Assembly: GCA_014804085.1 (NCBI GenBank)
Contig: JAAVAM010000015.1
Span: 1 to 11,199, forward strand
DNA length: 11,199 nucleotides
Direction: 5' to 3'
Source: Treponema sp.
GTDB taxonomy: Bacteria > Spirochaetota > Spirochaetia > Treponematales > Treponemataceae
Part shown: positions 1 through 9,834 of the stretch, piece after piece
How the letters are laid out: each line of letters begins with the position of its first letter
Position numbering within the stretch: the stretch's first letter is position 1
Notes under the pieces: generated by a model
What the model was told of the DNA's origin: nothing
The model's input: only the letters and a program-made list of their open reading frames with translations
The model's database searches: none
Program-made: the position numbers and the translations under genes

Positions 1-2929
1 CGGAAAGCCCGCGCTTGTTTGAATCGGAAAGGAACGCTCCCGAATTGCACGTGTCAAGCATGACGAGCGTCTTGCCCGCTTTGATTTTGGAAAGGTTCGC
101 CAGCAGGTCGTTCTTGGAGATGCCGCCGTTCGGAATGCTGTCTTTGGACGTGTAGCGGAAATCGGACGGAAGATAATAATAGTCGCCGTCGTCATACGTC
201 GTGCCGTGGCCGGAGACAAAGAACACGAACACGTCGTCCGCGCGGATATGCTGTGAAAGGCGCGAGAATTCCGCCGCAAGTTTTTCTTTCGTCACTTCGC
301 TGTCGTTGAGTTGCGAGACATGGACATTCCTGTACAGCCCAGATTTCTGCTTTTGGAATCCTTCTGCCACTGATTGGGCATCGGGCACGGCATAGTTGAG
401 CCACAGCGACTTGTCACGGTAGCGGTTGATGGCGGCGGTCAGCACATACAAGTCGGGCTTTGCCGTCGCACCGCGCCATACAACTTGCGCCGAAGAGCGC
501 ACGCTTTCCACAAGCCCTGCTCCGTTGAGTGCGAACGCTTCAAGCGTGTTGCTTCCGTTCTGAAGCGTGACAGTATGGCGGAACGAAACTATCTCCCCGT
601 CCGCAGAAGCAATACCGTCAGAAAGGCGGATTGCCTTGCCGTTCAAAAGCAGGTTCACCGCGCCGATGCCGCCGCCCGTGTTCTGCACGGAAATATCGAA
701 CGTCATGTCGCGCCCTGATGATTCTGCGGGAATGTCTAAAAGCGACACCGCCGGGGCGCGTCCGCTGCGCACGAGCGACGCAAGCCGCACCGATGACGCA
801 TACGCGGAGATGTCCTCGCCGCGCATTTTTGCCGCCACCAAGTCGGGGCGGTAGTAGGTGTCGTACACTTGATCAATGCCGATAACGTCCATGCCGTCCA
901 CGATGTAGACTAGATTCTGCGTAGCCCACTCGCTGCCGCAGAAGAAGCCTTCGGGGGTGTATGTGAGCCATTCGTAGTATTCGCCGTTTATTGTGGTGGA
1001 AAGCAGTGTGCCGTTCTGCGCATCCCAAATTTTGATAGTGCAGTCCTTGTTTCCACTTGCAATATATTTTCCGTCGGGCGACCATGCAATGGAGTATACT
1101 TGATAGGAATGCCCTGACATGGTGAGCAGTTCCTTGCCGTTCGCGGCATTCCAGATCTTCACGAAGCCATCATAACTCCCGATGGCAATGTACTTTCCAT
1201 CGGGCGACCATGCCACGGAGTTTACCCGATAGGAATGTCCTGACAGAGTACGCAGTTCCTTGCCGCTTGCGGCATCCCAGACTTTTACGGACTTGTCATC
1301 ACTCCCACTTGCAATGTACTTTCCATCGGGCGACCATGCCACGGAGTTTACATCGTCGGAATGCCCTGACAGAGTGCGCAGTTTTTTGCCGCTCGCGACA
1401 TTCCAGATCTTCACGAAGCCATCACAACTCCCGCTTGCAATGTACTTTCCGTCGGGCGACCATGCCACGGAGTTTACCAGATAGGAATGTCCTGATAGAG
1501 TGCGCAATTCCTTTCCACTTGTGGCATCCCAGACTTTCACGGACTTGTCATAACTCCCGCTGGCAATGTACTTGCCATCGGGCGACCATGCCACGGAGTC
1601 CACAGGGTCGGAATGCCCTGACAAAGTGTGCAGCTTTTTGCCGCTCGTGGCATTCCAGATCTTCACGAAGCCATCATCACCCCCGCTGGCAATGTACTTG
1701 CCATCGGGCGACCATGCAATGGAGTATACCCGATAGGAATGCCCTGACAGGATGCGTAGTTCCTTGCCGCCTGAGGCATCCCAGACTTTCACTGAGTCGT
1801 CATAACTCCCGCAGGCGATGTGCTTGCCGTCGGGCGACCATGCAATGGAGTATGCCAGATAGGAATGCCCTGACAGGGTGAGCAGTTCCTTACCGCTCGA
1901 GGTATCCCAGATTTTTACGGACTTGTCACCACTTGCGCTGGCGATATGCTTCCCGTCGGGCGACCATGCAATGGAGTATACCCGATAGGAATGCCCTGAC
2001 AGAGTATACAGCTTTTTGCCGCTTGCGGCATCCCAGACTTTCACGGAGGCATCAATAGTTCCGCAGGCGATGTGCTTGCCGTCGGGTGACCATGCTACGG
2101 AGTACATAGTACTGGAATGTCCTGACAGAGTGAGCAGTTCCTTGCCGCTTGCGGCATCCCAGACTTTTACGGACTTGTCATAACTTCCGCTTGCAATGTA
2201 TTTTCCATCGGGTGACCATGTCACGGAGTTCACAGAGTCGGAATGCCCTGACAGGGTGAACAGTTCCTTGCTGCTTGCGGTATCCCAGATTTTTACGGAC
2301 TTGTCACTACTTCCGCTGGCGATATGTTTTCCATCGGGCGACCATGCCACGGAGTTCACATCGTTGGAATGCTTGAGCGTGTACAACTCTTTTCCGCTTG
2401 CGGCATCCCAGATTTTCACGGAGTTGTCCCAGCTCCCGCTTGCAATGTACTTTCTATTGGGCGACCACGCCACAGATTCCACAAAGCTGGAATGCCCTGA
2501 CAGGGTGAGCAGTTCTTTTCCGCTTGCGGCATCCCAGACTTTTACGGACTTGTCATAACTCCCGCTGGCAATGTATTTTCCATCGGGTGACCATGTCACG
2601 GAGTTCACATAGTGGGAATGCCCTGATAGGGTGAACAGCTCCTTGCCGCTTGCGGCATCCCAGATTTTTACGGACTTGTCATAACTCCCGCTGGCAATGT
2701 ATTTTCCATCGGGCGACCATGCCACGGAGTTCACTTTGTCTGAGTGTCCATGTTGAAATCGCAATTCCGGCTCTGGACGTTCCGTGCCGTTTTTCGCAGT
2801 GCCAATCTTCTCCGCGACAATGCCGCGGGCTGTTTCTTGCGCAGGACAAAGCGCAGTTGCGCAAAATATCGCACAGGCAAGTACAGCGCGGATAGTGGGT
2901 ATTTTTGCAATGGTGGCGGAAATGTTCAT
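1..2929 (-). CDS. Secreted WD40-repeat caspase-family protein (partial, C-terminus off the left edge)
   Basis: The frame is open from the ATG at 2929-2927 to the window edge (976 codons, no stop). An AGGAGA Shine-Dalgarno at 2936-2941 supports this start. Residues 1-31 look like a Sec signal peptide (basic K9/R14, hydrophobic 15-28, cleavage near 28-31); VLAC at 16-19 is a weaker lipobox alternative. Residues about 60-637 hold 14 WD repeats with WSPDGK and KxWD motifs, the number needed for two seven-bladed propellers. Then come a degenerate blade-like stretch (WLTYTPEG), an Ig-like beta region (about 700-815) and a caspase domain from about 824. The catalytic dyad is intact: His908 in SGHG and Cys961 in DTCNSG, 53 residues apart. 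The family is peptidase C14/orthocaspase, whose known members mostly cleave after basic residues; the substrate here is unknown. The gene lies downstream of the DUF89 fusion gene and the hairpin array. The caspase C-terminal end is not visible. Confidence 0.92.
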   Translation of the reverse strand, partial: MNISATIAKIPTIRAVLACAIFCATALCPAQETARGIVAEKIGTAKNGTERPEPELRFQHGHSDKVNSVAWSPDGKYIASGSYDKSVKIWDAASGKELFTLSGHSHYVNSVTWSPDGKYIASGSYDKSVKVWDAASGKELLTLSGHSSFVESVAWSPNRKYIASGSWDNSVKIWDAASGKELYTLKHSNDVNSVAWSPDGKHIASGSSDKSVKIWDTASSKELFTLSGHSDSVNSVTWSPDGKYIASGSYDKSVKVWDAASGKELLTLSGHSSTMYSVAWSPDGKHIACGTIDASVKVWDAASGKKLYTLSGHSYRVYSIAWSPDGKHIASASGDKSVKIWDTSSGKELLTLSGHSYLAYSIAWSPDGKHIACGSYDDSVKVWDASGGKELRILSGHSYRVYSIAWSPDGKYIASGGDDGFVKIWNATSGKKLHTLSGHSDPVDSVAWSPDGKYIASGSYDKSVKVWDATSGKELRTLSGHSYLVNSVAWSPDGKYIASGSCDGFVKIWNVASGKKLRTLSGHSDDVNSVAWSPDGKYIASGSDDKSVKVWDAASGKELRTLSGHSYRVNSVAWSPDGKYIAIGSYDGFVKIWNAANGKELLTMSGHSYQVYSIAWSPDGKYIASGNKDCTIKIWDAQNGTLLSTTINGEYYEWLTYTPEGFFCGSEWATQNLVYIVDGMDVIGIDQVYDTYYRPDLVAAKMRGEDISAYASSVRLASLVRSGRAPAVSLLDIPAESSGRDMTFDISVQNTGGGIGAVNLLLNGKAIRLSDGIASADGEIVSFRHTVTLQNGSNTLEAFALNGAGLVESVRSSAQVVWRGATAKPDLYVLTAAINRYRDKSLWLNYAVPDAQSVAEGFQKQKSGLYRNVHVSQLNDSEVTKEKLAAEFSRLSQHIRADDVFVFFVSGHGTTYDDGDYYYLPSDFRYTSKDSIPNGGISKNDLLANLSKIKAGKTLVMLDTCNSGAFLSDSNKRGLS
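1019..2752 (-). repeat. 14 tandem WD40 units (about 126 bp each)
   Basis: The codons for SPDGK recur near 1074, 1200, 1326, 1452, 1578, 1704, 1830, 1956, 2082, 2208, 2334, 2457, 2583 and 2709. The period is 126 bp, apart from one 123-bp step where the usual SGH is shortened to KH around 2370. The units are similar in DNA as well as protein: 2521-2587 and 2647-2713 differ at one base in 67. This points to recent duplication or gene conversion. The unit at 2457 reads WSPNRK instead of WSPDGK. Confidence 0.95.
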
Positions 2930-2943
2930 AATTGTTCTCCTAT

Positions 2944-2985
2944 AAAAAGCCAAGAGCGATTTTGGAAAATCGCTTTTGGCTTTTT
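2944..2985. terminator. Bidirectional hairpin with T-tracts, abutting the caspase gene's ribosome binding site
   Basis: Two 20-nt arms (2944-2963 and 2966-2985) pair with one mismatch around a GG loop. Either strand ends in TTTTT after a GC-containing stem, which is the form of a Rho-independent terminator. On the minus strand it ends 2 nt before the AGGAGA Shine-Dalgarno of the WD40-caspase gene (2936-2941), so no promoter fits between them. It could end transcripts from the upstream DUF89 gene or act as an attenuator for the caspase gene. Confidence 0.7.
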
Positions 2986-2987
2986 GC

Positions 2988-3015
2988 GCACATTCGCAAC
3001 ACAGTGAGAATGTGC
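2988..3015. repeat. Inverted repeat, 8-bp perfect stem
   Basis: GCACATTC at 2988-2995 pairs perfectly with GAATGTGC at 3008-3015 across a 12-nt loop. It is the second of four adjacent hairpins in the spacer between the DUF89 fusion gene and the caspase gene. Confidence 0.75.
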
Positions 3016-3025
3016 ATTAAATATG

Positions 3026-3046
3026 CAAGTTTCCAACGGAAACTTG
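3026..3046. repeat. Inverted repeat, 9-bp perfect stem with 3-nt loop
   Basis: CAAGTTTCC at 3026-3034 pairs perfectly with GGAAACTTG at 3038-3046 around the loop AAC. It is the third hairpin of the spacer and lies 2 nt from the next one. Confidence 0.8.
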
Positions 3047-3047
3047 T

Positions 3048-3090
3048 CATGATAAAAAGTTGGCGACACTTCAGACAACTTTTTATCATG
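3048..3090. repeat. Inverted repeat, 15-bp perfect stem with 13-nt loop
   Basis: CATGATAAAAAGTTG at 3048-3062 is the exact reverse complement of 3076-3090. It is the first hairpin met by transcripts leaving the DUF89 fusion gene, whose stop is at 3122-3124. Both arms carry a five-base A or T run. It may be the 3' end structure of that transcript, part of a dispersed palindromic element, or both. Confidence 0.8.
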
Positions 3091-3121
3091 TCTCCTTGAA
3101 ATTGGCTTATTTGCGGCGGTG

Positions 3122-5800
3122 TCATCCCTTGGAATGCGATGACTCTTCATCTACGAAAAAATACATTAAAATGGGACGGTTTTCCGTATCATAATAGTTT
3201 TTTATGTCGTAATAATCATAGGGAGCATTCTTTCGGTCACCGGCAATTTGCTGCAATGTCTGTTTCAGCATTTGCTGGAATTTCTGTTTGACTTCTTGAT
3301 TGACCTCTCTTTTTTCTCCGTAATTTGAAATTTTGAGCAGTTCCTGCATCATAGTTTCTGAATCGTATGTGCTTCCGTGCAGGTTGGAATTTGCTTTGGT
3401 TTTGGAATAGTTCCACAGAATGACGGCGCACAGTTCCCGCGCAAAAACTCCGGCGCACATTGCTATGTGTTGCAGGATGCCTATCTCTATTTCACCGATT
3501 TCATTGCTTTTGTCAAAACGCACTGCATACTCAAAGTCGGAAATATCCTTGACCGCCCGGAGCGCAGGGCGCAAGTTTTCTTCTTTCGCCTTTGTCGCCT
3601 CTTCTTCCAAAATATGCTGTGCAGAAGCCAATGGGAACATTTCGCGGTGGTAAGATTCATACGGATGTTCGGATTGGAATTTTTCCGCCACTTCGTCGTG
3701 AAACTTTTTTATAGAGGAAGCGATGACACCTTCCTCAAGGAAACGGATGAAGTCGCGGTATTCGATAAAGCCGGTTTTCTTGCTGTCAAGATTTTTGTAC
3801 CGTTTGAGCGAGCGGTATGCCCAGCCGATGCTCCATACAGGATAATTTTCATGCAATTGGAATGCGACCATCCGGGAAAGATGTGCGTCCGTGCGGTGCA
3901 GTTCGTTCTGCGTATCTTTTATACGCTCCTGAAAACGCTCATCTACCATTTGTTTCACGTTTTCCTTGGCGTATTCCTCGAGACCTTTCTCAACTTCTCT
4001 CTTTAGAAGCACTTTCGGAATAATGAGCGTTCCCGTGAGAAAAATGGCGTACCCCGTCAGCAGGAGCGTAAAATCAATCCGCCCGGCAACGTCTCCGTAT
4101 TTCAGTTCTGCGGTTTTCGCAGGCTGTTTTGGTTCTGACTGTTCCGACGGGGTGGGACTGACGATAATTATGCCTCTCTGATTTCGCTGTGTCTCTTGAA
4201 AGTGTTCAGTTTTTTGCGTTTTTGGCAAGTCGGAATTTTCGTGCGCTATGACGACCGTCTGCGCTATCACGGGAATGGTGCTGACTGCAAGCATGGCAAG
4301 AATCAGCACGATTGCCATAGTATAACATATATTTATGGTGATATAAAACCCGTTCTTTTTTCCATTGTCGGGATTTTTTGTATTTTGTTGTTCTCTGGCG
4401 TTTGTGGCGGGCGGCTTTGACTCCGCATTCTTGCTGTCGTCCGCACCGCTATGCTTCGATCGTGAGGCTTTCTCTTTCTCTTTTTGCGCTTCTTTTTTAT
4501 AGTGATCGTATCTATTGCACCTGAAATGCACAACTGCCCATTTTCCGCTGCCTTTGAAACGCTGGTCGGCAGGTGCGCCGTGGCTATCGCTGCTTTTTGC
4601 CGTGTGGTAGGCGGCTTCCGATACGCCGACAAGCACGTCCGACTTGATGACGCGCGGCGCAAAAATCGGCACGTCCCCGAACACGCCTTTCGTGCGTTCA
4701 AGAAAGGAATCCGTATACGGCCAGTCCCTGTCCTCCACGAGCCGCCGATAGTTCAAGTCGCCTTTGACGATAATCAAATCGCTGTTGCACAACTGCTCGC
4801 GCAATTTGCTTTCTTCCGGCATTTTCTTGAAGCAGTATGGCGCAGCCCAGAACATATCGTCTTCGATTTCGATTTTTCCTTCATGGATATAGTTGTTGCA
4901 CTGCGCAGCGCACTCTGTTCCATCATGCCGCATAATGGCGTTCATCATAAAGCCGAAATCTTCTTTCGTCGCGTCCGAGACAAAGAACGGGTACGGCTTG
5001 AGATGAAACACAACTTTTTCAACGATGTTGTTGGACAAAAAATAGCAGGCGAGGTATAGGTCGGAAAACAGTTCCTTGCCCGCGTTGTCGCAAATGATGT
5101 CGAAGCGTTTGAATTTTTTGTTGGCATTAAGATATTGAAACAGAATTTCCGTGTCATCGTGCAGAAGATTGACGTCTTCCATTCCGTAATCAAAGCGTTC
5201 TTTTGCGTTCAGCTGGCTCAAATCGCTCGTGTTTGCGGACAGACAGTATTGGATGCATGTGCGGAAGGTCTTGAGGGTGAAGCCGTCTTGCGTTCCTGGT
5301 GAAGGAAGTTCGCCCAGTTTTTTGATGAATGCATCCCGACTATTTTCCAAGCTGTCTTTCTTCTCCGTCGCGAAAAAGTCATATTGGTTTGAAAAGTATT
5401 TTTTCTGAGCGAGCAGTGCATGATAGAACAGGACTTCCGATTCAAAAAATGGGGCGCACTTGAAGAACTGTCTGAGCGTGCTCTCCCTTGTTAGTTTTTC
5501 TTTAGGATATTCGGGAGGCGAATGACGTTGTATTTTTTCATTTACGGTGTTCAGGAAATGTTTGACACCGTAGTCGTCAAGCAACGAGTATGAATTCGGA
5601 TTGTCTGATTCTTTCGGCTTAAGAGCCTCATTGACCGTCTTTTCCAAAAAGTCCTTCTCATAATCTCCCGAACAATAATCTTTAAAAATTTTGCGGAAGC
5701 GCGTTCTTGCCGTAAAGTGCGCGAACGATTCTTTTCCAAGATCTTGGACTTCATCTTTTCCGATGAAAAAATAGTCTGCCTGCTTCTTGTCTGTTTCCAT
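3122..5800 (-). CDS. DUF89/ARMT1-like phosphatase domain fused to a two-pass membrane anchor and an unknown cytoplasmic domain
   Basis: 892 residues; the ATG at 5800-5798 follows GGAG at 5808-5811. Residues about 20-430 match the DUF89/ARMT1 metal-dependent phosphatase pattern: a helical start (SFAHFTARTRFRKI), CDNAGKELFSDL with D238/N239, FHLKPYPFFVSD with D276, VKGDLNYRRL at 345-354 with K346, and a closing GKWAVVHF near 419-426. Family members act on phosphorylated metabolites (damage-control phosphatases); the metal-binding and catalytic residues appear present. A charged linker (430-484) leads to TM1 (about 486-514), a proline-rich loop (515-575), TM2 (about 576-598) and a charged, partly coiled C-terminal domain (600-892) that I do not recognise. 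There is no signal peptide, and lysines flank both helices on the same side, so both soluble domains should be cytoplasmic and the loop periplasmic. The gene starts 35 nt after the DUF4384 gene, probably in one operon. DUF89 proteins are usually soluble single-domain enzymes, so this fusion is unusual. Confidence 0.85.
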   Translation of the reverse strand: METDKKQADYFFIGKDEVQDLGKESFAHFTARTRFRKIFKDYCSGDYEKDFLEKTVNEALKPKESDNPNSYSLLDDYGVKHFLNTVNEKIQRHSPPEYPKEKLTRESTLRQFFKCAPFFESEVLFYHALLAQKKYFSNQYDFFATEKKDSLENSRDAFIKKLGELPSPGTQDGFTLKTFRTCIQYCLSANTSDLSQLNAKERFDYGMEDVNLLHDDTEILFQYLNANKKFKRFDIICDNAGKELFSDLYLACYFLSNNIVEKVVFHLKPYPFFVSDATKEDFGFMMNAIMRHDGTECAAQCNNYIHEGKIEIEDDMFWAAPYCFKKMPEESKLREQLCNSDLIIVKGDLNYRRLVEDRDWPYTDSFLERTKGVFGDVPIFAPRVIKSDVLVGVSEAAYHTAKSSDSHGAPADQRFKGSGKWAVVHFRCNRYDHYKKEAQKEKEKASRSKHSGADDSKNAESKPPATNAREQQNTKNPDNGKKNGFYITINICYTMAIVLILAMLAVSTIPVIAQTVVIAHENSDLPKTQKTEHFQETQRNQRGIIIVSPTPSEQSEPKQPAKTAELKYGDVAGRIDFTLLLTGYAIFLTGTLIIPKVLLKREVEKGLEEYAKENVKQMVDERFQERIKDTQNELHRTDAHLSRMVAFQLHENYPVWSIGWAYRSLKRYKNLDSKKTGFIEYRDFIRFLEEGVIASSIKKFHDEVAEKFQSEHPYESYHREMFPLASAQHILEEEATKAKEENLRPALRAVKDISDFEYAVRFDKSNEIGEIEIGILQHIAMCAGVFARELCAVILWNYSKTKANSNLHGSTYDSETMMQELLKISNYGEKREVNQEVKQKFQQMLKQTLQQIAGDRKNAPYDYYDIKNYYDTENRPILMYFFVDEESSHSKG

Positions 5801-5835
5801 GGTGTTTCTCCTTAAAGATGATTTTTCACGCCACG

Positions 5836-6807
5836 CTAATTCATCACCGTATACGTAATCTTATAGACATTCGTCTCATACTCTTCCGCAGACTGTTGCT
5901 TGACCGCCATAATGCCGCGCGAAGTCTGCTGAATGTCGCCACGATTGTATGTACCGCCAGAATCCTGCGCGGGAAGCCCTGCCGGAGACGTGGAGGCATA
6001 GACAAGAATCTGCTCCGCGCCGTACACGCCGTCAACGACTTTGTACACCTGCCCGGCGATGTCGGGGAAGACTTTCACTTCGTCTGCGCGCATAAAATTG
6101 TCCCGCACGGGAAGCCAGTTTTTGTCGCCGTTCGCGTCGATGCACAAAAGCGCGATGTACGAATCCTTTTGCGTGGAAATCATAAAGCGCACGATGTCAT
6201 TCGGGTGGAGGATGTCAACTTGTTTGTTATGTTCGTCGAGCATACTGGCTTTAATACGGAAAGAATCGCTAGACATATCGTTTTCTGTTTCCATAAAATC
6301 CGCCGCGATTTCTTTTGCCAGTTCGTAGTTGTCAGGTTCGTATTTCATATTGCGCAGACTGCTCGCGGAAAATATTACGGACGACTTTTTTGTATTTCCC
6401 GCAAATTGCTTGTAAGAAAAAAATATCTGTACCTTGTCGCTCTGTCGCATAAATGTTGACGCAAGCACCCCAGCGGGAAATTTTCGCTGCACCCACTTCT
6501 CGGCATCAATTTCGTACACGCCGCTGTCTTTCAGTTCCGAGAGGAACAGTTCGGACTGGCGATCCGCGTCCAAATTGAAAAGTTCTTTTTCGGCATCGGA
6601 CAAAGCAATTTCTATCACCTCTTTCAGATACACCGAAAATTGCGATGCCGTGTCCGTCTCTGAATAGGTGGGCGTTTCAACTTGAATCACAATATCCTTT
6701 GCGGGAATGATTTTGTTGACGGCTTTTGCCACTTCCTCGGAAAAGTCAAACGCGAAGCATGACATTCCAATCCGCAGAATGCAAATTGATGACAATAGTT
6801 TTTTCAT
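5836..6807 (-). CDS. Exported DUF4384-domain protein
   Basis: 323 residues. The ATG at 6807-6805 overlaps the upstream stop as ATGA, and a GGAGG lies just before it inside the end of the upstream gene, so translation is probably coupled. Residues 1-19 form a signal peptide (KK, then a hydrophobic stretch, cleavage near CFA/FDF); C17 lacks a good lipobox. Residues about 25-175 are a predicted alpha/beta region (VLASTFM, VQIFFSYKQF) that faintly resembles FlgO/CsgG-type periplasmic domains; this is a weak inference. Residues about 183-275 fit DUF4384: DIVRFMISTQKDSYIALL, then CIDANGDKNWL, then VYGAEQILVYAST. DUF4384 is often fused to, or found near, bacterial caspases, which fits the caspase gene in this cluster. 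Its biochemical role is unknown; a periplasmic ligand- or partner-binding role is plausible. Confidence 0.75.
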   Translation of the reverse strand: MKKLLSSICILRIGMSCFAFDFSEEVAKAVNKIIPAKDIVIQVETPTYSETDTASQFSVYLKEVIEIALSDAEKELFNLDADRQSELFLSELKDSGVYEIDAEKWVQRKFPAGVLASTFMRQSDKVQIFFSYKQFAGNTKKSSVIFSASSLRNMKYEPDNYELAKEIAADFMETENDMSSDSFRIKASMLDEHNKQVDILHPNDIVRFMISTQKDSYIALLCIDANGDKNWLPVRDNFMRADEVKVFPDIAGQVYKVVDGVYGAEQILVYASTSPAGLPAQDSGGTYNRGDIQQTSRGIMAVKQQSAEEYETNVYKITYTVMN

Positions 6808-8267
6808 TTGGTTTCCTCCATTTTGCTTTTCAATTCGCTATAAAAAATAGAATCTTTGTCCAGCTGTTTGTAGCACGATTCCGCCGCGTCAAGCATAGAA
6901 GCGTCTTTCATTTTGCTCAGTCCTATTCCCGAAAAATCCGCGCTTTTTACTTGCGTCACGCCGTTTTTCTGAATCTGAATGTTTCCCGAAATTTTGCTTT
7001 TTGAGACTGATTCATGGCTTGCAAGCGACGCTCCGTCCAAATGTATGATAAATTTCCATCGGCTTTCTTTTTTGGAGCCGTCGATGAATATCGGGATTTC
7101 ATTTTTGCGGATTGCGCCTTGCATCGCGTCGGTGAATTTCTGTTCGATGTGCGCGTTCTTTTCTGCCATGCCCGAATAGACGAATTCGATTCCGGCGTAA
7201 ACCGGGACGACTTCAAACATCATCACCGCAGAACCGGTACAAACAATGTCCGCATCGAATCCTTTCACGTCGCTCAACAATTGCACTTCGACCGTATATG
7301 TTCCGTAATCGAGCGAAACGGTGTGAATGATGATGTCCACGGAATTGTCGGCATTCAGTCCGTAGAACGCAGTGCCCGAAACTTTTCCCTTGGAGACAAG
7401 CGACACTTTTGCTTTTATGCCCGAAACCTTCTCATAATCGGGCGACTTGATTTTTACCGTTCCCAAAAACGGCTCGCCTTTTTCTATGGTGACTTCGTAT
7501 TTTGTTTCCGCGACCGCGCAGTTTTGCATGATTCGCTTTGCCTGACTTATCGCATATTCGTCCAAGGCGGTCTTCCCTGATTCTGCATTGAAATACGCGA
7601 CCGATTGATACATTGGATTTTCGCGGACTGCTTTGCACACGGACAGATAGGCTTCCGCCGCCGCTCCCGTTGAAACATATTTGCCCGGCTGTTTTTCGGG
7701 CAGAAGCGCGGCATATCGTTCCGAAATATCTGCGGCAAACGATTCTATTTCTTTCTGAACTTTTTCTTTTGGAACGCTGCATTTTACATAGCACAGCCAT
7801 TGTTCTTTGTCGCTTTCGACCGAATATTGTTCAACATAATAATTTTCTGCGGCAACTTGGGAGACATACCGTTGCGCGAATGACTGAATCAATTCTTCGC
7901 GTTCAAGATAAGGGTCGATAACATCAGAAGACAGAGCCTTCACTGATTTTGTTTCGTTTGACTGGCTTTTTATGACCGTGCCGTAAAATTTGACAATCTG
8001 ATTCATTGCATTGGTGCGGGCATCTCCGCGCGCTTCTGTTTCCGTCGAAAAATAATTGGAAACGCCGATAAAATAAAGGTTCGCGTCTGACGCAGGAATG
8101 GAATCGCACCAGTCCGGCCTCTGTTCGGGGAACGATGCGACAAGCAGTTTCTTTTCGGAAGCCTCCTGCAAAATCGAATCGAACTGTTTTTTTGACGACA
8201 GGCATCCCGTTACGGCGAATATGAAACAGACAAGGCAAACAAATCGGATGCTAAAAAAGTGCCGCAT
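6804..8267 (-). CDS. LPP20-family lipoprotein
   Basis: 487 residues from the ATG at 8267-8265, chosen because AGGGGG lies just upstream (8272-8277) and a lipoprotein signal peptide follows directly. An in-frame ATG at 8333 has no ribosome site and lies inside the previous gene's terminator. The signal is MRHFF, a hydrophobic core, then VTGC with Cys22 as the lipidated residue. Residues about 50-180 form an LPP20-like domain (RPDWCDSIP, YFIGVSN, EARGDARTNAMNQIVKFYG) closely matching the small gene at 8355-9014. Residues about 255-360 look like a beta-sandwich, and the rest (380-487) is an unrecognised mixed domain ending in a helix. Probably outer- or inner-membrane anchored on the periplasmic side. 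It shares a 4-nt overlap with the DUF4384 gene. No clear promoter was found in the short gap upstream. Confidence 0.8.
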   Translation of the reverse strand: MRHFFSIRFVCLVCFIFAVTGCLSSKKQFDSILQEASEKKLLVASFPEQRPDWCDSIPASDANLYFIGVSNYFSTETEARGDARTNAMNQIVKFYGTVIKSQSNETKSVKALSSDVIDPYLEREELIQSFAQRYVSQVAAENYYVEQYSVESDKEQWLCYVKCSVPKEKVQKEIESFAADISERYAALLPEKQPGKYVSTGAAAEAYLSVCKAVRENPMYQSVAYFNAESGKTALDEYAISQAKRIMQNCAVAETKYEVTIEKGEPFLGTVKIKSPDYEKVSGIKAKVSLVSKGKVSGTAFYGLNADNSVDIIIHTVSLDYGTYTVEVQLLSDVKGFDADIVCTGSAVMMFEVVPVYAGIEFVYSGMAEKNAHIEQKFTDAMQGAIRKNEIPIFIDGSKKESRWKFIIHLDGASLASHESVSKSKISGNIQIQKNGVTQVKSADFSGIGLSKMKDASMLDAAESCYKQLDKDSIFYSELKSKMEETK

Positions 8268-8354: not shown

Positions 8355-9014
8355 CTAGAACAAGGACGGCTGCAACATGCCACCGAACAGTTCCGAAGTC
8401 TTTTCAAGCTGACGGCGTTTTTCCGCGTCTTTTTCTGCTTCTGCTTTTGACTGGTATTCAGCCGCTTTTTGATTGCAATATTCCTGCATCGCTTTGTCCG
8501 CCTGTTCCTTGTCAATCTGCATGAGCGCATACACTTTGAATGCGTTTTTTGAAGCCTGCGTGAAATACACTTCCGTGTAGAATTCTTTTGCGGGAAGTCC
8601 TTTCGCAAGACCTTCCGCAACGAATTCCTCAAGCTCCTGGGAGGCGACCTGCGGGTCAAACACATCGCTTGTGATGCCATAGGTTGCCGTCGCCTTTCTT
8701 CCCTTGTCCGAAATCAGCGTGCCGTAGTATTTTACGAGCTGATCGCGTCCGTTACCCTGCGCCGCGTCTCTGGCCTCGGCATCCGTTGCATACTGATTGC
8801 TACAGCCGACAAAAGCAAGCGTCTTGCCCGTAATCGGCACGGAATCAACCCATGACGGTCGCTTTTCGGGAATCGTCTGAATGGGCTTTAATGTCGCAAT
8901 GGCGGCTTCCCTTTGCCGAGCCGCTTCTTTCGCCTGCTTTTTCGCGGATTTTGCAAATCCCGAAAAATTCACCGCCATGACTGCCATCGCAATCAAAACT
9001 AGTTTTCGTTTCAT
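8355..9014 (-). CDS. Small exported LPP20-family protein
   Basis: 219 residues from the ATG at 9014-9012. This start follows AAGGAG (9021-9026) at good spacing and begins a clear signal peptide (MKRK, hydrophobic core, SGFA/K with cleavage after A21). A longer frame from 9101 adds 29 residues without a ribosome site and would bury the signal. After a basic linker (22-35) the LPP20-like domain carries RPSWVDSVP, FVGCSNQY, EARDAAQGNGRDQLVKYYG and then SDVFDP. The same blocks, including SDVxDP, occur in the same order in the lipoprotein at 6804-8267, so the two are paralogues. There is no lipobox, so it is probably soluble periplasmic. The C-terminus is a charged helix (residues about 175-205). 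It has its own terminator, so it is likely transcribed separately. Confidence 0.8.
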   Translation of the reverse strand: MKRKLVLIAMAVMAVNFSGFAKSAKKQAKEAARQREAAIATLKPIQTIPEKRPSWVDSVPITGKTLAFVGCSNQYATDAEARDAAQGNGRDQLVKYYGTLISDKGRKATATYGITSDVFDPQVASQELEEFVAEGLAKGLPAKEFYTEVYFTQASKNAFKVYALMQIDKEQADKAMQEYCNQKAAEYQSKAEAEKDAEKRRQLEKTSELFGGMLQPSLF

Positions 9015-9155
9015 AAAAAACTCCTTGAAAAAATATTTTGCGGACTTCAATAAATTGTGCTTTTTTGCCGAGTAAGCAACAATATATTGAAGTTTAAGCA
9101 TTAGTTTACAACAATATTTTAATTTTCACAAGGGGGTCGGAATCATTATTTTGAT
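9015..9155. promoter_or_regulatory. AT-rich divergent intergenic region with a direct repeat
   Basis: This gap separates the divergent small LPP20-family gene and the XRE regulator, so it should hold both promoters. CAACAATAT occurs at 9077-9085 and again at 9109-9117, 32 bp apart (about three helical turns), which would suit binding by one regulator. On the minus strand TTGTTG and CACAAT, 17 bp apart, are a weak -35/-10 candidate for the LPP20-family gene. AGGGGG at 9131-9136 is too far from ATG 9156 to be a normal ribosome site. Confidence 0.4.
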
Positions 9156-9482
9156 ATGCTGAATCAGATGGCGTTCAAGGACAGGCTGAGAGAGGAAATC
9201 GAATTCAAGGGGATGCTCGTAAAGGAAGTCGCGGCTGCGGCGGGAATCAGCAACAGCACGTTCCTGTCGTACATCGACGCGCGGGGGGTACTGCCGAACG
9301 TGGAGACGGCGGTCAAAATTGCGGAGACGCTCGGCGTGTCGGTCGAATACCTTGTGACGGGTAAGGATGCCTCCCGCCCTTCGCGGCTGCACGAGATTCA
9401 GAACATCGTGGACGACCTGCTCGCGCTCGACAAAGAAAAAATCGCCGTGCTGCGCAAGATGATTCACGCGCTGGTGGGATAG
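9156..9482 (+). CDS. XRE-family helix-turn-helix transcriptional regulator
   Basis: 108 residues. Residues about 8-67 match an HTH_3 (Cro/C1-type) domain: helix-turn-helix around 22-41 (VKEVAAAAGISNSTFLSYI), then NVETAVKIAETLGVSVEYLVTG, which is the standard end of such domains. A C-terminal helical tail (75-108) with leucines may mediate dimerisation. The start could be ATG 9156 or the in-frame ATG 9168 (MAFKDRL); neither has a well-placed ribosome site. DNA targets are unknown; the CAACAATAT pair upstream and the GGATAA palindromes downstream are candidates. It is divergent from the LPP20-family gene, a common arrangement for a local regulator, but it is GC-rich like asnA. Confidence 0.85.
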   Translation: MLNQMAFKDRLREEIEFKGMLVKEVAAAAGISNSTFLSYIDARGVLPNVETAVKIAETLGVSVEYLVTGKDASRPSRLHEIQNIVDDLLALDKEKIAVLRKMIHALVG

Positions 9483-9486
9483 CAGG

Positions 9487-9505
9487 ATTTATCCTTTGGA
9501 TAAAT
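9487..9505. repeat. GGATAA palindrome 1
   Basis: ATTTATCC (9487-9494) and GGATAAAT (9498-9505) form a perfect 8-bp inverted repeat around TTT. It begins 5 nt after the stop codon of the XRE gene. No T-tract follows, so it is a poor terminator. Confidence 0.8.
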
Positions 9506-9509
9506 AAAA

Positions 9510-9545
9510 TTATCCTTACCATAAATCAATTTATAGTAAGGATAA
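9510..9545. repeat. GGATAA palindrome 2
   Basis: TTATCCTTAC (9510-9519) pairs with GTAAGGATAA (9536-9545), and ATAAAT (9521-9526) pairs with ATTTAT (9529-9534). The whole is a 17-position stem with one mismatch and a CA loop. Confidence 0.85.
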
Positions 9546-9553
9546 CCATAGGT

Positions 9554-9587
9554 TACAGTAAGGATAAATCAATTTATCCTTACTGTA
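9554..9587. repeat. GGATAA palindrome 3, perfect 16-bp arms
   Basis: TACAGTAAGGATAAAT (9554-9569) is the exact reverse complement of 9572-9587 around a CA loop. It shares the 14-bp centre ATAAATCAATTTAT with palindrome 2, but the GTAAGG flanks point the opposite way. As a terminator for the XRE gene it would be weak, since only TTT follows. Confidence 0.88.
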
Positions 9588-9591
9588 TTTG

Positions 9592-9612
9592 GATTTATGT
9601 AAAGGATAAATC
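9592..9612. repeat. GGATAA palindrome 4
   Basis: GATTTAT (9592-9598) and ATAAATC (9606-9612) form a 7-bp inverted repeat enclosing another AAGGATAA box. It closes a 126-bp cluster with seven copies of the GGATAA/TTATCC core. Confidence 0.65.
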
Positions 9613-9650: not shown

Positions 9651-9834
9651 CGTTACAGGGTGGTGATACCGGGCGTTACAGGGTGGTGACAGCGGGCGTT
9701 ACAGGGTGCTGATACCGGGCGTTACAGGGTAGTGATAGCGGGCGTTACAAGGTGGTGATACCGGGCGTTACAGGGTAGTAATACCGAACGTTACAAGGTG
9801 CTGATAGCGGGCGTTATAAGGTGCTGATGGCGGA
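9651..9834 (+). repeat. Eight tandem copies of a 23-bp repeat
   Basis: Units start at 9651, 9674, 9697, 9720, 9743, 9766, 9789 and 9812, with no change in spacing. The consensus is CGTTACAGGGTGGTGATACCGGG, with variation at positions such as G/A in CAGGG and CC/GC in ATACC. The last unit is the most diverged. A partial inverted copy (CGGTATCAG, 9632-9640) lies just upstream. A period of 23 is not a multiple of three and no supported gene covers it, so it is non-coding: a minisatellite or an iteron-like array of protein sites. Confidence 0.95.

What the first reader, a model, noticed from the sequence alone, without database searches (positions are those of the whole stretch)
1..8267. Candidate envelope system: LPP20 lipoprotein, DUF4384 protein, membrane-tethered DUF89 phosphatase and WD40-caspase
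Four consecutive same-strand genes, with a 4-nt overlap, a 35-nt gap and then a hairpin spacer, combine three predicted exported proteins with a membrane-anchored cytoplasmic enzyme. DUF4384 and caspase domains are known to co-occur, but I know of no described system that adds an ARMT1-like phosphatase and an LPP20 lipoprotein. One possible model: periplasmic WD40/LPP20/DUF4384 proteins sense or assemble at the envelope, and the DUF89 fusion relays this to the cytoplasm. The seen parts are gene order, overlaps, signal peptides and motifs; the joint function is inference.
Basis: partly seen in the sequence, partly recalled or inferred. Interest (0 to 1): 0.78.

Follow-up and report, generated by a model that had tools for sequence, protein, structure and literature searches.

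The report
Mosaic envelope sensor cassette of Treponema
In a few Treponema-type bacteria, a mobile gene cassette joins fast-varying exported binding proteins to a two-pass membrane protein that carries an intact-looking enzyme; it looks like an undescribed recognition-and-response system, but its function has not been tested.

Summary
The gene order is real and longer than reported: divergent HTH gene, two related exported proteins, DUF4384, DUF89-membrane protein, WD40-caspase (cut by the contig end). In 6 of 7 readable loci the DUF89-membrane fusion lies between a DUF4384 gene and a caspase-type gene. Its membrane module occurs in 10 of 200 genus genomes, the full fusion in 5 of 196. The cassette is mosaic: four of its proteins are 94-96% identical to those of G137, a species whose two tested housekeeping proteins are 67-68% identical, yet the membrane half of the DUF89 gene and the WD40 half of the caspase gene are replaced, with breaks near domain borders. 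The WD40 repeats vary at positions that vary in fungal non-self receptors (pN/pS 1.57 against 0.23). The membrane module is an undescribed helical family; in other loci it sits near CsgG/FlgO/LpoB-like proteins with lectin-type ends, diversified in three loci (two independent) by a retroelement, once beside the same DUF89 fusion. DUF89 active-site residues are conserved. Best reading: a mobile trans-envelope recognition system with hypervariable sensors, two-pass relay and cytoplasmic phosphatase. Ligand, topology, signalling and outcome are inference.

The parts
2..2929 (-). Signal-peptide-like N-terminus + 14 WD40 repeats + caspase-like (C14) protein, 3' end cut off by the contig end
   Evidence: ORF; WD40; Peptidase_C14 1.7e-9; His (SGHG) and Cys (DTCNSG) motifs at residues 906 and 959 counted from 2929
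1010..2770 (-). Fourteen WD40 repeats; most variable columns 12, 30, 32, 4, 11, 14
   Evidence: mean pairwise identity 70.5%; pN/pS 1.57 at 7 a-priori columns v 0.23 at the other 35, 13 of 14 repeats used; columns 30, 12, 14, 11, 32 the top five in 34 homologues
26..433 (-). Caspase (Peptidase_C14) domain, incomplete
   Evidence: window 1-973 is 93.6% identical to G137 at DNA level
2930..3121 (-). Spacer with two hairpins (2944-2985, 3048-3090); spacing not conserved
   Evidence: gap 9 nt in G117 and overlap 16 nt in L071, by first possible start codons
3122..5800 (-). DUF89/ARMT1-like phosphatase domain - two membrane segments - helical C-terminal module (892 aa)
   Evidence: PF01937 1.1e-50; best PDB match 7t7n 9.5e-34; active-site residues in 70-71 of 71 aligned rows; helical module without PDB fold match at E<=0.001
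4619..5437 (-). ARMT1-like domain (residues 122-394)
4016..4318 (-). Two membrane segments (residues 495-513, 577-595) and the loop between them
   Evidence: hydropathy
3125..3973 (-). Helical relay module (conserved DAHLSRM / GW / R..KD..D), a family of its own
   Evidence: alignments A1, A2; model; no Pfam match at E<=0.1 for L056 or E<=0.01 for L063
5836..6807 (-). Exported DUF4384 protein: LpoB-like N-terminal domain + DUF4384 beta-sandwich
6804..8267 (-). Large lipoprotein (lipobox VTGC, by eye), LPP20-like below cut-off
8355..9014 (-). Small exported relative of the large lipoprotein, first gene of the cassette
9015..9155 (.). Divergent intergenic region, alignable in five loci (candidate operator)
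   Evidence: alignment A6
9156..9482 (+). CI-type HTH regulator, co-inherited with the cassette
   Evidence: PF07022 7.4e-7; 96% identical in G137 and G061, 90% in G162

Best explanation
The cassette encodes a mobile, module-swapping trans-envelope recognition-and-response system. Exported proteins (WD40-caspase with a hypervariable binding face, LpoB-like DUF4384 protein, two lipoprotein-type proteins) bind a variable ligand, for example a phage part, a competitor's surface or toxin, or a kin marker. Binding is passed, directly or through caspase cleavage, to a two-pass membrane protein whose helical cytoplasmic module controls an ARMT1-like metal-dependent phosphatase on the same chain. The released phosphatase activity changes sugar-phosphate or nucleotide pools and stops growth or protects the population. 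The HTH protein represses the operon when it is not needed. Shown: gene order, domains, conserved active-site residues, module swapping, transfer between species, hypervariable repeats, retroelement-diversified neighbours of the same membrane module. Inferred: export and membrane topology (hydropathy), ligand, direction of signalling, protease substrate, phosphatase substrate, outcome, role of the HTH protein.
For: Order kept in 6 of 7 fusion loci. HTH, both lipoprotein-type and DUF4384 proteins 94-96% identical in G137 although asnA and a second housekeeping protein are 67% and 68% identical and the outer flank differs: horizontal transfer. DNA mosaic with breaks near 5637, 4483 and 973; the membrane part 3122-4480 has no blastn match at E<=1e-3 to G061 or G137, although G061 shares the site beside asnA and is 97-99% identical in the same two housekeeping proteins. 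All four combinations of two membrane-module types with WD40 and non-WD40 caspases occur, one of them inferred from equal contig length only. WD40 diversity at fungal non-self-receptor positions. The same membrane module beside DGR-diversified lectin-type proteins in L064, L065 (one near-identical element) and, with DUF89 fused, in L094. Neighbouring FRG (L069) and DUF4062 (L066) genes. Active-site residues in 70-71 of 71 aligned rows.
Against: No experiment. PADLOC has no match to the DUF89, DUF4384 or lipoprotein-type proteins; its only matches are generic, to the WD40-caspase (caspase 1.3e-8, a HEAT model) and the HTH protein. No phage or plasmid copies. Near-identical WD40 repeats also arise by recent amplification (PMC9218822, passages). 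L095 has the module without a recognisable receptor. The helical module has no PDB match to suggest signalling. LpoB-like folds are also known from cell-wall regulators (recalled). In L071 the contrast between the a-priori columns and the rest is weaker (1.11 v 0.65).
Confidence: 0.5

Rival explanations
1. Envelope maintenance system: LpoB/FlgO/LPP20-like proteins regulate cell-wall synthesis or an outer-membrane assembly, the caspase processes envelope proteins, and the DUF89 enzyme recycles a phosphorylated precursor or damaged metabolite.
For: The DUF4384 protein has an LpoB-like N-terminal fold; neighbours of the module in other loci match CsgG, FlgO and LpoB; DUF89 relatives with structures are damage-control phosphatases.
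Against: Membrane module in only 10 of 200 genomes of the genus; transferred between distant species; modules replaced between close relatives; hypervariable binding surfaces and DGR-diversified neighbours.
Confidence: 0.22
2. Adhesion or host-interaction system: the variable proteins are surface adhesins for gut polymers or host cells, and the membrane protein adjusts metabolism on contact.
For: Several named relatives come from goat and sheep gut samples; lectin-type Lcl_C ends. [quoted passage not shown]
Against: A caspase domain and neighbouring FRG/DUF4062 genes are unusual for adhesion (judgement from general knowledge); no surface-display protein was recognised among the cassette genes.
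Confidence: 0.18
3. Unlinked functions in a convenient operon: DUF89 is a metabolic enzyme that was fused by chance to a membrane anchor, and the caspase and lipoproteins act elsewhere.
For: G145 keeps the cassette without DUF89; L094 has DUF89 without caspase.
Against: Adjacency in 6 of 7 loci and conserved fusion to the same membrane module in two contexts; transfer as one unit.
Confidence: 0.1

Closest known systems
Fungal HNWD NOD-like receptors (HET-D, HET-E)
   Same: Very similar WD40 repeats with high dN/dS at repeat positions 10, 11, 12, 14, 30, 32, 39 (PMC12222747, passages); combinatorial domain exchange (PMC4986451, passages)
   Different: No NACHT/STAND NTPase found here; caspase domain instead of HET-type effectors; signal-peptide-like N-terminus rather than cytoplasmic
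DGR-diversified putative conflict systems (PMC10907252, passages)
   Same: Retroelement-diversified C-type-lectin-type sensor beside a signalling partner; caspase and trypsin effectors in the wider set
   Different: Those described there use STAND or MoxR NTPases; here a two-pass helical module, in one locus fused to DUF89, with CsgG/LpoB-like scaffolds. No DGR was found at the window locus
NTP-dependent ternary conflict systems (PMC7159879, passages)
   Same: Hypervariable parts, peptidases, modular effectors
   Different: No NTPase found in the cassette; envelope-spanning layout (inferred). DUF4384 does not occur in that main text
Bacterial orthocaspases with WD40 or DUF4384 (PMC7475262, passages)
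   Same: Caspase with WD40; DUF4384 as an accessory domain
   Different: There DUF4384 is a domain of the caspase protein; here it is a separate exported protein with an LpoB-like domain, in an operon with a DUF89 membrane protein
DUF89 damage-control phosphatases (S. pombe SPCC1393.13, 7t7n)
   Same: Sequence match 9.5e-34 over residues 138-426; active-site residues kept
   Different: Matched chains are of about 440 residues, without the membrane module fused here

Membership tests
DUF89/ARMT1-like phosphatases | PF01937 above gathering score | tested here: met
   173 bits v 25
DUF89/ARMT1-like phosphatases | Conserved active-site residues (DNxGxE, SD, KGDLN, R..K motifs; roles recalled) | tested here: met
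   D238, N239, E243, D276, K346, D348, N350, R383, K386 in 70-71 of 71 aligned rows, the window's and G117's proteins counted twice, one row truncated
DUF89/ARMT1-like phosphatases | Metal-dependent phosphatase activity | not testable with these tools
   needs an enzyme assay
LPP20 lipoproteins | PF02169 above gathering score | tested here: not met
   13.9 bits v 25.9
DUF4384 proteins | PF14326 above gathering score | tested here: met
   38.4 bits v 27
Caspase-like C14 peptidases | PF00656 above gathering score with His-Cys motifs | tested here: met
   38.2 bits v 21.4 on the cut domain; motifs
Hypervariable WD40 receptors | Repeats alike overall, with diversifying change at binding-surface positions | tested here: met
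   pN/pS 1.57 v 0.23; 7 of 50000 random column sets reach the same pN; register inferred from the SPDG and WD motifs; surface position taken from the fungal papers
Hypervariable WD40 receptors | Concerted evolution in a population | not tested
   no strain collection was examined
DGR-diversified systems | Template and variable repeats differing at A only, with reverse transcriptase | tested here: not met
   On the window's contig only WD40 repeat-to-repeat pairs with at most 7 A-only mismatches, no separate template; no match to the L064 RT in the own genome (no positive control, genome 90% complete). Met in relatives L064, L065, L094
STAND/NTPase conflict systems | STAND, NACHT or MoxR NTPase in the operon | tested here: not met
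   no such match in the cassette proteins in Pfam (for the WD40-caspase only 25 of 79 families were shown, and its end is missing) or NCBIfam

The most novel reading that the evidence does not exclude
A two-pass helical membrane module, undescribed as a family, is the common relay of an envelope-spanning recognition system in spirochaetes. It connects interchangeable, diversified extracytoplasmic receptors (WD40-caspases with hypervariable faces in some loci, retroelement-diversified CsgG/LpoB-lectin proteins in others) to interchangeable cytoplasmic effectors, of which a membrane-tethered ARMT1-like phosphatase is the main one: an immune- or kin-recognition receptor that needs no NTPase.
Probability: 0.35. 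Interest if true: 0.88.

Novelty: new variant of a known kind. Interest (0 to 1): 0.72.

Why it matters
The bacterial systems with hypervariable sensors in the papers seen here are built on NTPases (PMC10907252, PMC7159879; passages). This cassette would show that bacteria also diversify receptors outside the cytoplasmic membrane and couple them to an enzyme inside, by two routes (WD40 repeat variation and retroelement mutation) that meet at one relay module. It would give DUF89 phosphatases a signalling context and DUF4384 proteins a structural reading (LpoB-like adaptor plus sandwich domain). The claims are directly testable with purified proteins and with strain or metagenome data.

Tried and rejected
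Rejected: a chance cluster (6 of 7 loci keep the order); a fixed four-family system (DUF89 and WD40 are optional modules); phage or plasmid origin (no match); LPP20 membership (below cut-off). A DGR acting on the window locus: not found. A stricter scan gave three pairs with 5 or more A-only mismatches in 60 nt in L050 and none in L051; in the WD40 gene four pairs with 4 or more mismatches were A-only and none C-, G- or T-only. These are pairs of WD40 repeats; I read the A bias as codon-ending differences among repeats but did not test that. No RT match in the own genome (no positive control). Inconclusive: profile comparison of the DUF4384 protein with the DGR-linked lectin proteins (20% probability, E 0.0011) and of the lipoproteins with them (nothing); PDB fold search of the helical module (no E<=0.001; best rows include designed bundles and 14-3-3 proteins with TM-scores near 0.2, taken as noise). 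The hairpin spacer is not conserved in spacing. In the held library no paper had LPP20 with DUF4384, DUF89 with retroelement or CsgG with diversity-generating retroelement; one had DUF89 with Treponema, on another subject by its listing; a search for the fission-yeast enzyme found none, and the listing for ARMT1 with damage-control phosphatase showed no bacterial signalling paper. Papers PMC4986451, PMC12222747, PMC10907252, PMC7159879, PMC7475262 and PMC9218822 were seen as passages only, others as listings. Limits: pN/pS used 13 of the 14 window repeats, 11 in L071 and 4 in L052, picked by a motif; the caspase homologue counts use 120 listed of 367 hits; shared contig lengths were compared by eye.
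Full report
What is in the window. Records whose contig lengths equal those of related handles are titled Treponema sp., uncultured Treponema, Spirochaetaceae or Spirochaetales, several from goat or sheep gut samples. On the minus strand, in order: small exported protein 8355-9014, large lipoprotein 6804-8267, DUF4384 protein 5836-6807, DUF89-membrane protein 3122-5800, and WD40-caspase from 2929 off the contig end. A CI-type HTH gene lies divergently at 9156-9482. The small first gene and the HTH gene were not in the finding but belong to the cassette: both are 96% identical in G137; in G061 they are 99% and 96% identical, and the intergenic region between them aligns in five loci.

Distribution and order. 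The DUF89 protein gave matches in 10 of 196 genus genomes, five of them over most of its length (G000, G117, G137, G061, G084) and five over the C-terminal part only. A profile of the C-terminal module found 10 of 200 genus genomes, 6 of 392 drawn from the phylum, 7 of 390 drawn from the order and 1 of 4 of the family of G245; these sets overlap. Seven loci with the full fusion could be read: the window, L052, L053, L054, L055, L071 and L094. In six of seven the gene upstream is DUF4384 and the gene downstream is caspase-type. In L055 the next gene is a 662-residue C14 caspase followed by the start of a WD40-caspase-like gene; in L054 the contig ends inside the WD40 part; in L071 the caspase part rests on the BLAST match to the window protein. 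In L094 neither neighbour is present. Sequence homologues of the lipoprotein-type genes are upstream in the window, L053 and L054; L055 and L071 have two unrelated or distant exported-looking genes in those places; L052 ends at the contig edge. Homologues of the HTH gene are present in the window, L053, L054 and L071; L055 has a different small gene there. As a further hint, 11 of 66 DUF89-fusion proteins share the exact longest-contig length with a listed caspase protein (by eye; only 120 of 367 caspase hits were listed).

Mosaic structure and transfer. HTH, lipoprotein-type and DUF4384 proteins are 94-96% identical between the window and G137, while asnA and a second housekeeping protein are 67% and 68% identical and G137 has the cassette beside other genes, with asnA on another contig. 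That is recent horizontal transfer. G061 is a close relative (99% and 97% for the same proteins) with the cassette beside asnA, as in the window. DNA alignment: window 5638-9600 matches G061 at 94.1% and 5636-9487 matches G137 at 92.7%; 4485-5482 (DUF89 domain) at 84.4% and 78.7%; 1-973 (caspase end) matches G137 at 93.6%; the WD40 region has no match of 100 nt or more in G137 except 2756-2913. The membrane and C-terminal part, 3122-4480, has no blastn match at E<=1e-3 to either, but matches G117 at 84% over 953 nt. Protein identity tells the same: DUF89 residues 110-430 80-84% identical to G137 and G061, residues 570-892 31-32%. P0064 switches near residue 560 instead. Among the 13 caspase homologues with 95% or more identity in the C-terminal part (P0067-P0079), nine have 3-14 detected WD40 repeats and four have none; of those four, two were scanned and show only weak propeller matches.

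WD40 surface. The window protein has 14 repeats with 70.5% mean pairwise identity. Entropy is highest in columns 12, 30, 32, 4, 11 and 14. In 34 homologues with at least seven well-aligned repeats the five most variable columns are 30, 12, 14, 11 and 32. In fungal HNWD receptors the high dN/dS positions are 10, 11, 12, 14, 30, 32 and 39 (PMC12222747, passages). Taking these as an a-priori set, with the register inferred from the SPDG and WD motifs, pN/pS among 13 window repeats is 1.57 against 0.23 at the other 35 columns, and 7 of 50,000 random column sets reach the same pN; L071 gives 1.11 against 0.65 (12 of 50,000) and L052 1.16 against 0.29 with only four repeats (106 of 50,000). Highly repetitive propellers also arise by recent amplification, and authors connect some to innate immunity (PMC9218822, passages).

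The membrane module. Residues 470-892 form a family of their own: 17 invariant columns in 10 diverse members, 18 in 48, no Pfam match in stand-alone members L056 and L063, no PDB sequence match below E 0.4. The model (mean pLDDT 77) is nearly all helical, with one long helix from residue 108 to 180 of the piece, which includes the second membrane segment; Foldseek finds no PDB match at E<=0.001. Hydropathy gives two membrane segments, 495-513 and 577-595, so the DUF89 domain and the helical module would lie on the same side, presumably the cytoplasm; this is inference. G145 carries the module without DUF89 in an otherwise similar cassette.

The enzyme. The DUF89 domain matches fission-yeast damage-control phosphatases (7t7n, 9.5e-34, residues 138-426). 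Residues of the conserved motifs (D238, N239, E243, D276, K346, D348, N350, R383, K386; roles recalled) are present in 70-71 of 71 aligned rows, two proteins counted twice and one row truncated, so it is probably maintained as an enzyme. Substrate is unknown.

Reading and limits. The simplest account of patchy distribution, transfer as a unit, module exchange near domain borders, hypervariable binding faces by two mechanisms and a conserved enzyme is a recognition-and-response system across the envelope, related in logic to fungal NLRs and to DGR-diversified bacterial conflict systems (PMC4986451, PMC10907252, PMC7159879; passages), but without an NTPase that I could find. Whether it recognises phage, rivals, kin or environmental polymers cannot be told from sequence. 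PADLOC has no match to the DUF89, DUF4384 or lipoprotein-type proteins and only generic ones to the caspase and HTH proteins, and no copies were found in phage or plasmid records.

Noticed in passing
window 9651-9834: About eight tandem copies of a 23-nt unit between the HTH gene and asnA.
   Followed up: no
window 9498-9609: Cluster of palindromes built from a GGATAAAT/ATTTATCC motif downstream of the HTH gene.
   Followed up: no
window 1010-2770: Among WD40 repeat pairs, single-base-only mismatch runs occur at A (four pairs with 4-7) but not at C, G or T; no template or reverse transcriptase was found for it.
   Followed up: partly
L060 9473-18785: DUF4384 gene, transglutaminase-DUF4384 gene, one further gene, then a 1807-residue TPR-CHAT-Sel1 protein: a caspase-clan variant of the same cassette idea.
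   Followed up: partly
L062 4080-14877: DUF4384 locus with an HTH homologue, trypsin-like, Sel1-caspase and transglutaminase-like proteins.
   Followed up: partly
L058 12235-15270: The caspase match is split over two open frames in G021.
   Followed up: no
L069 1381-3049: Helical module gene overlaps an FRG-domain gene, with a CsgG-Lcl_C gene next to it.
   Followed up: partly
L095 9557-10465: Distant copy of the helical module in another family, beside a CoiA_N protein and near what looks like restriction-modification genes (by eye), without a recognisable receptor.
   Followed up: partly
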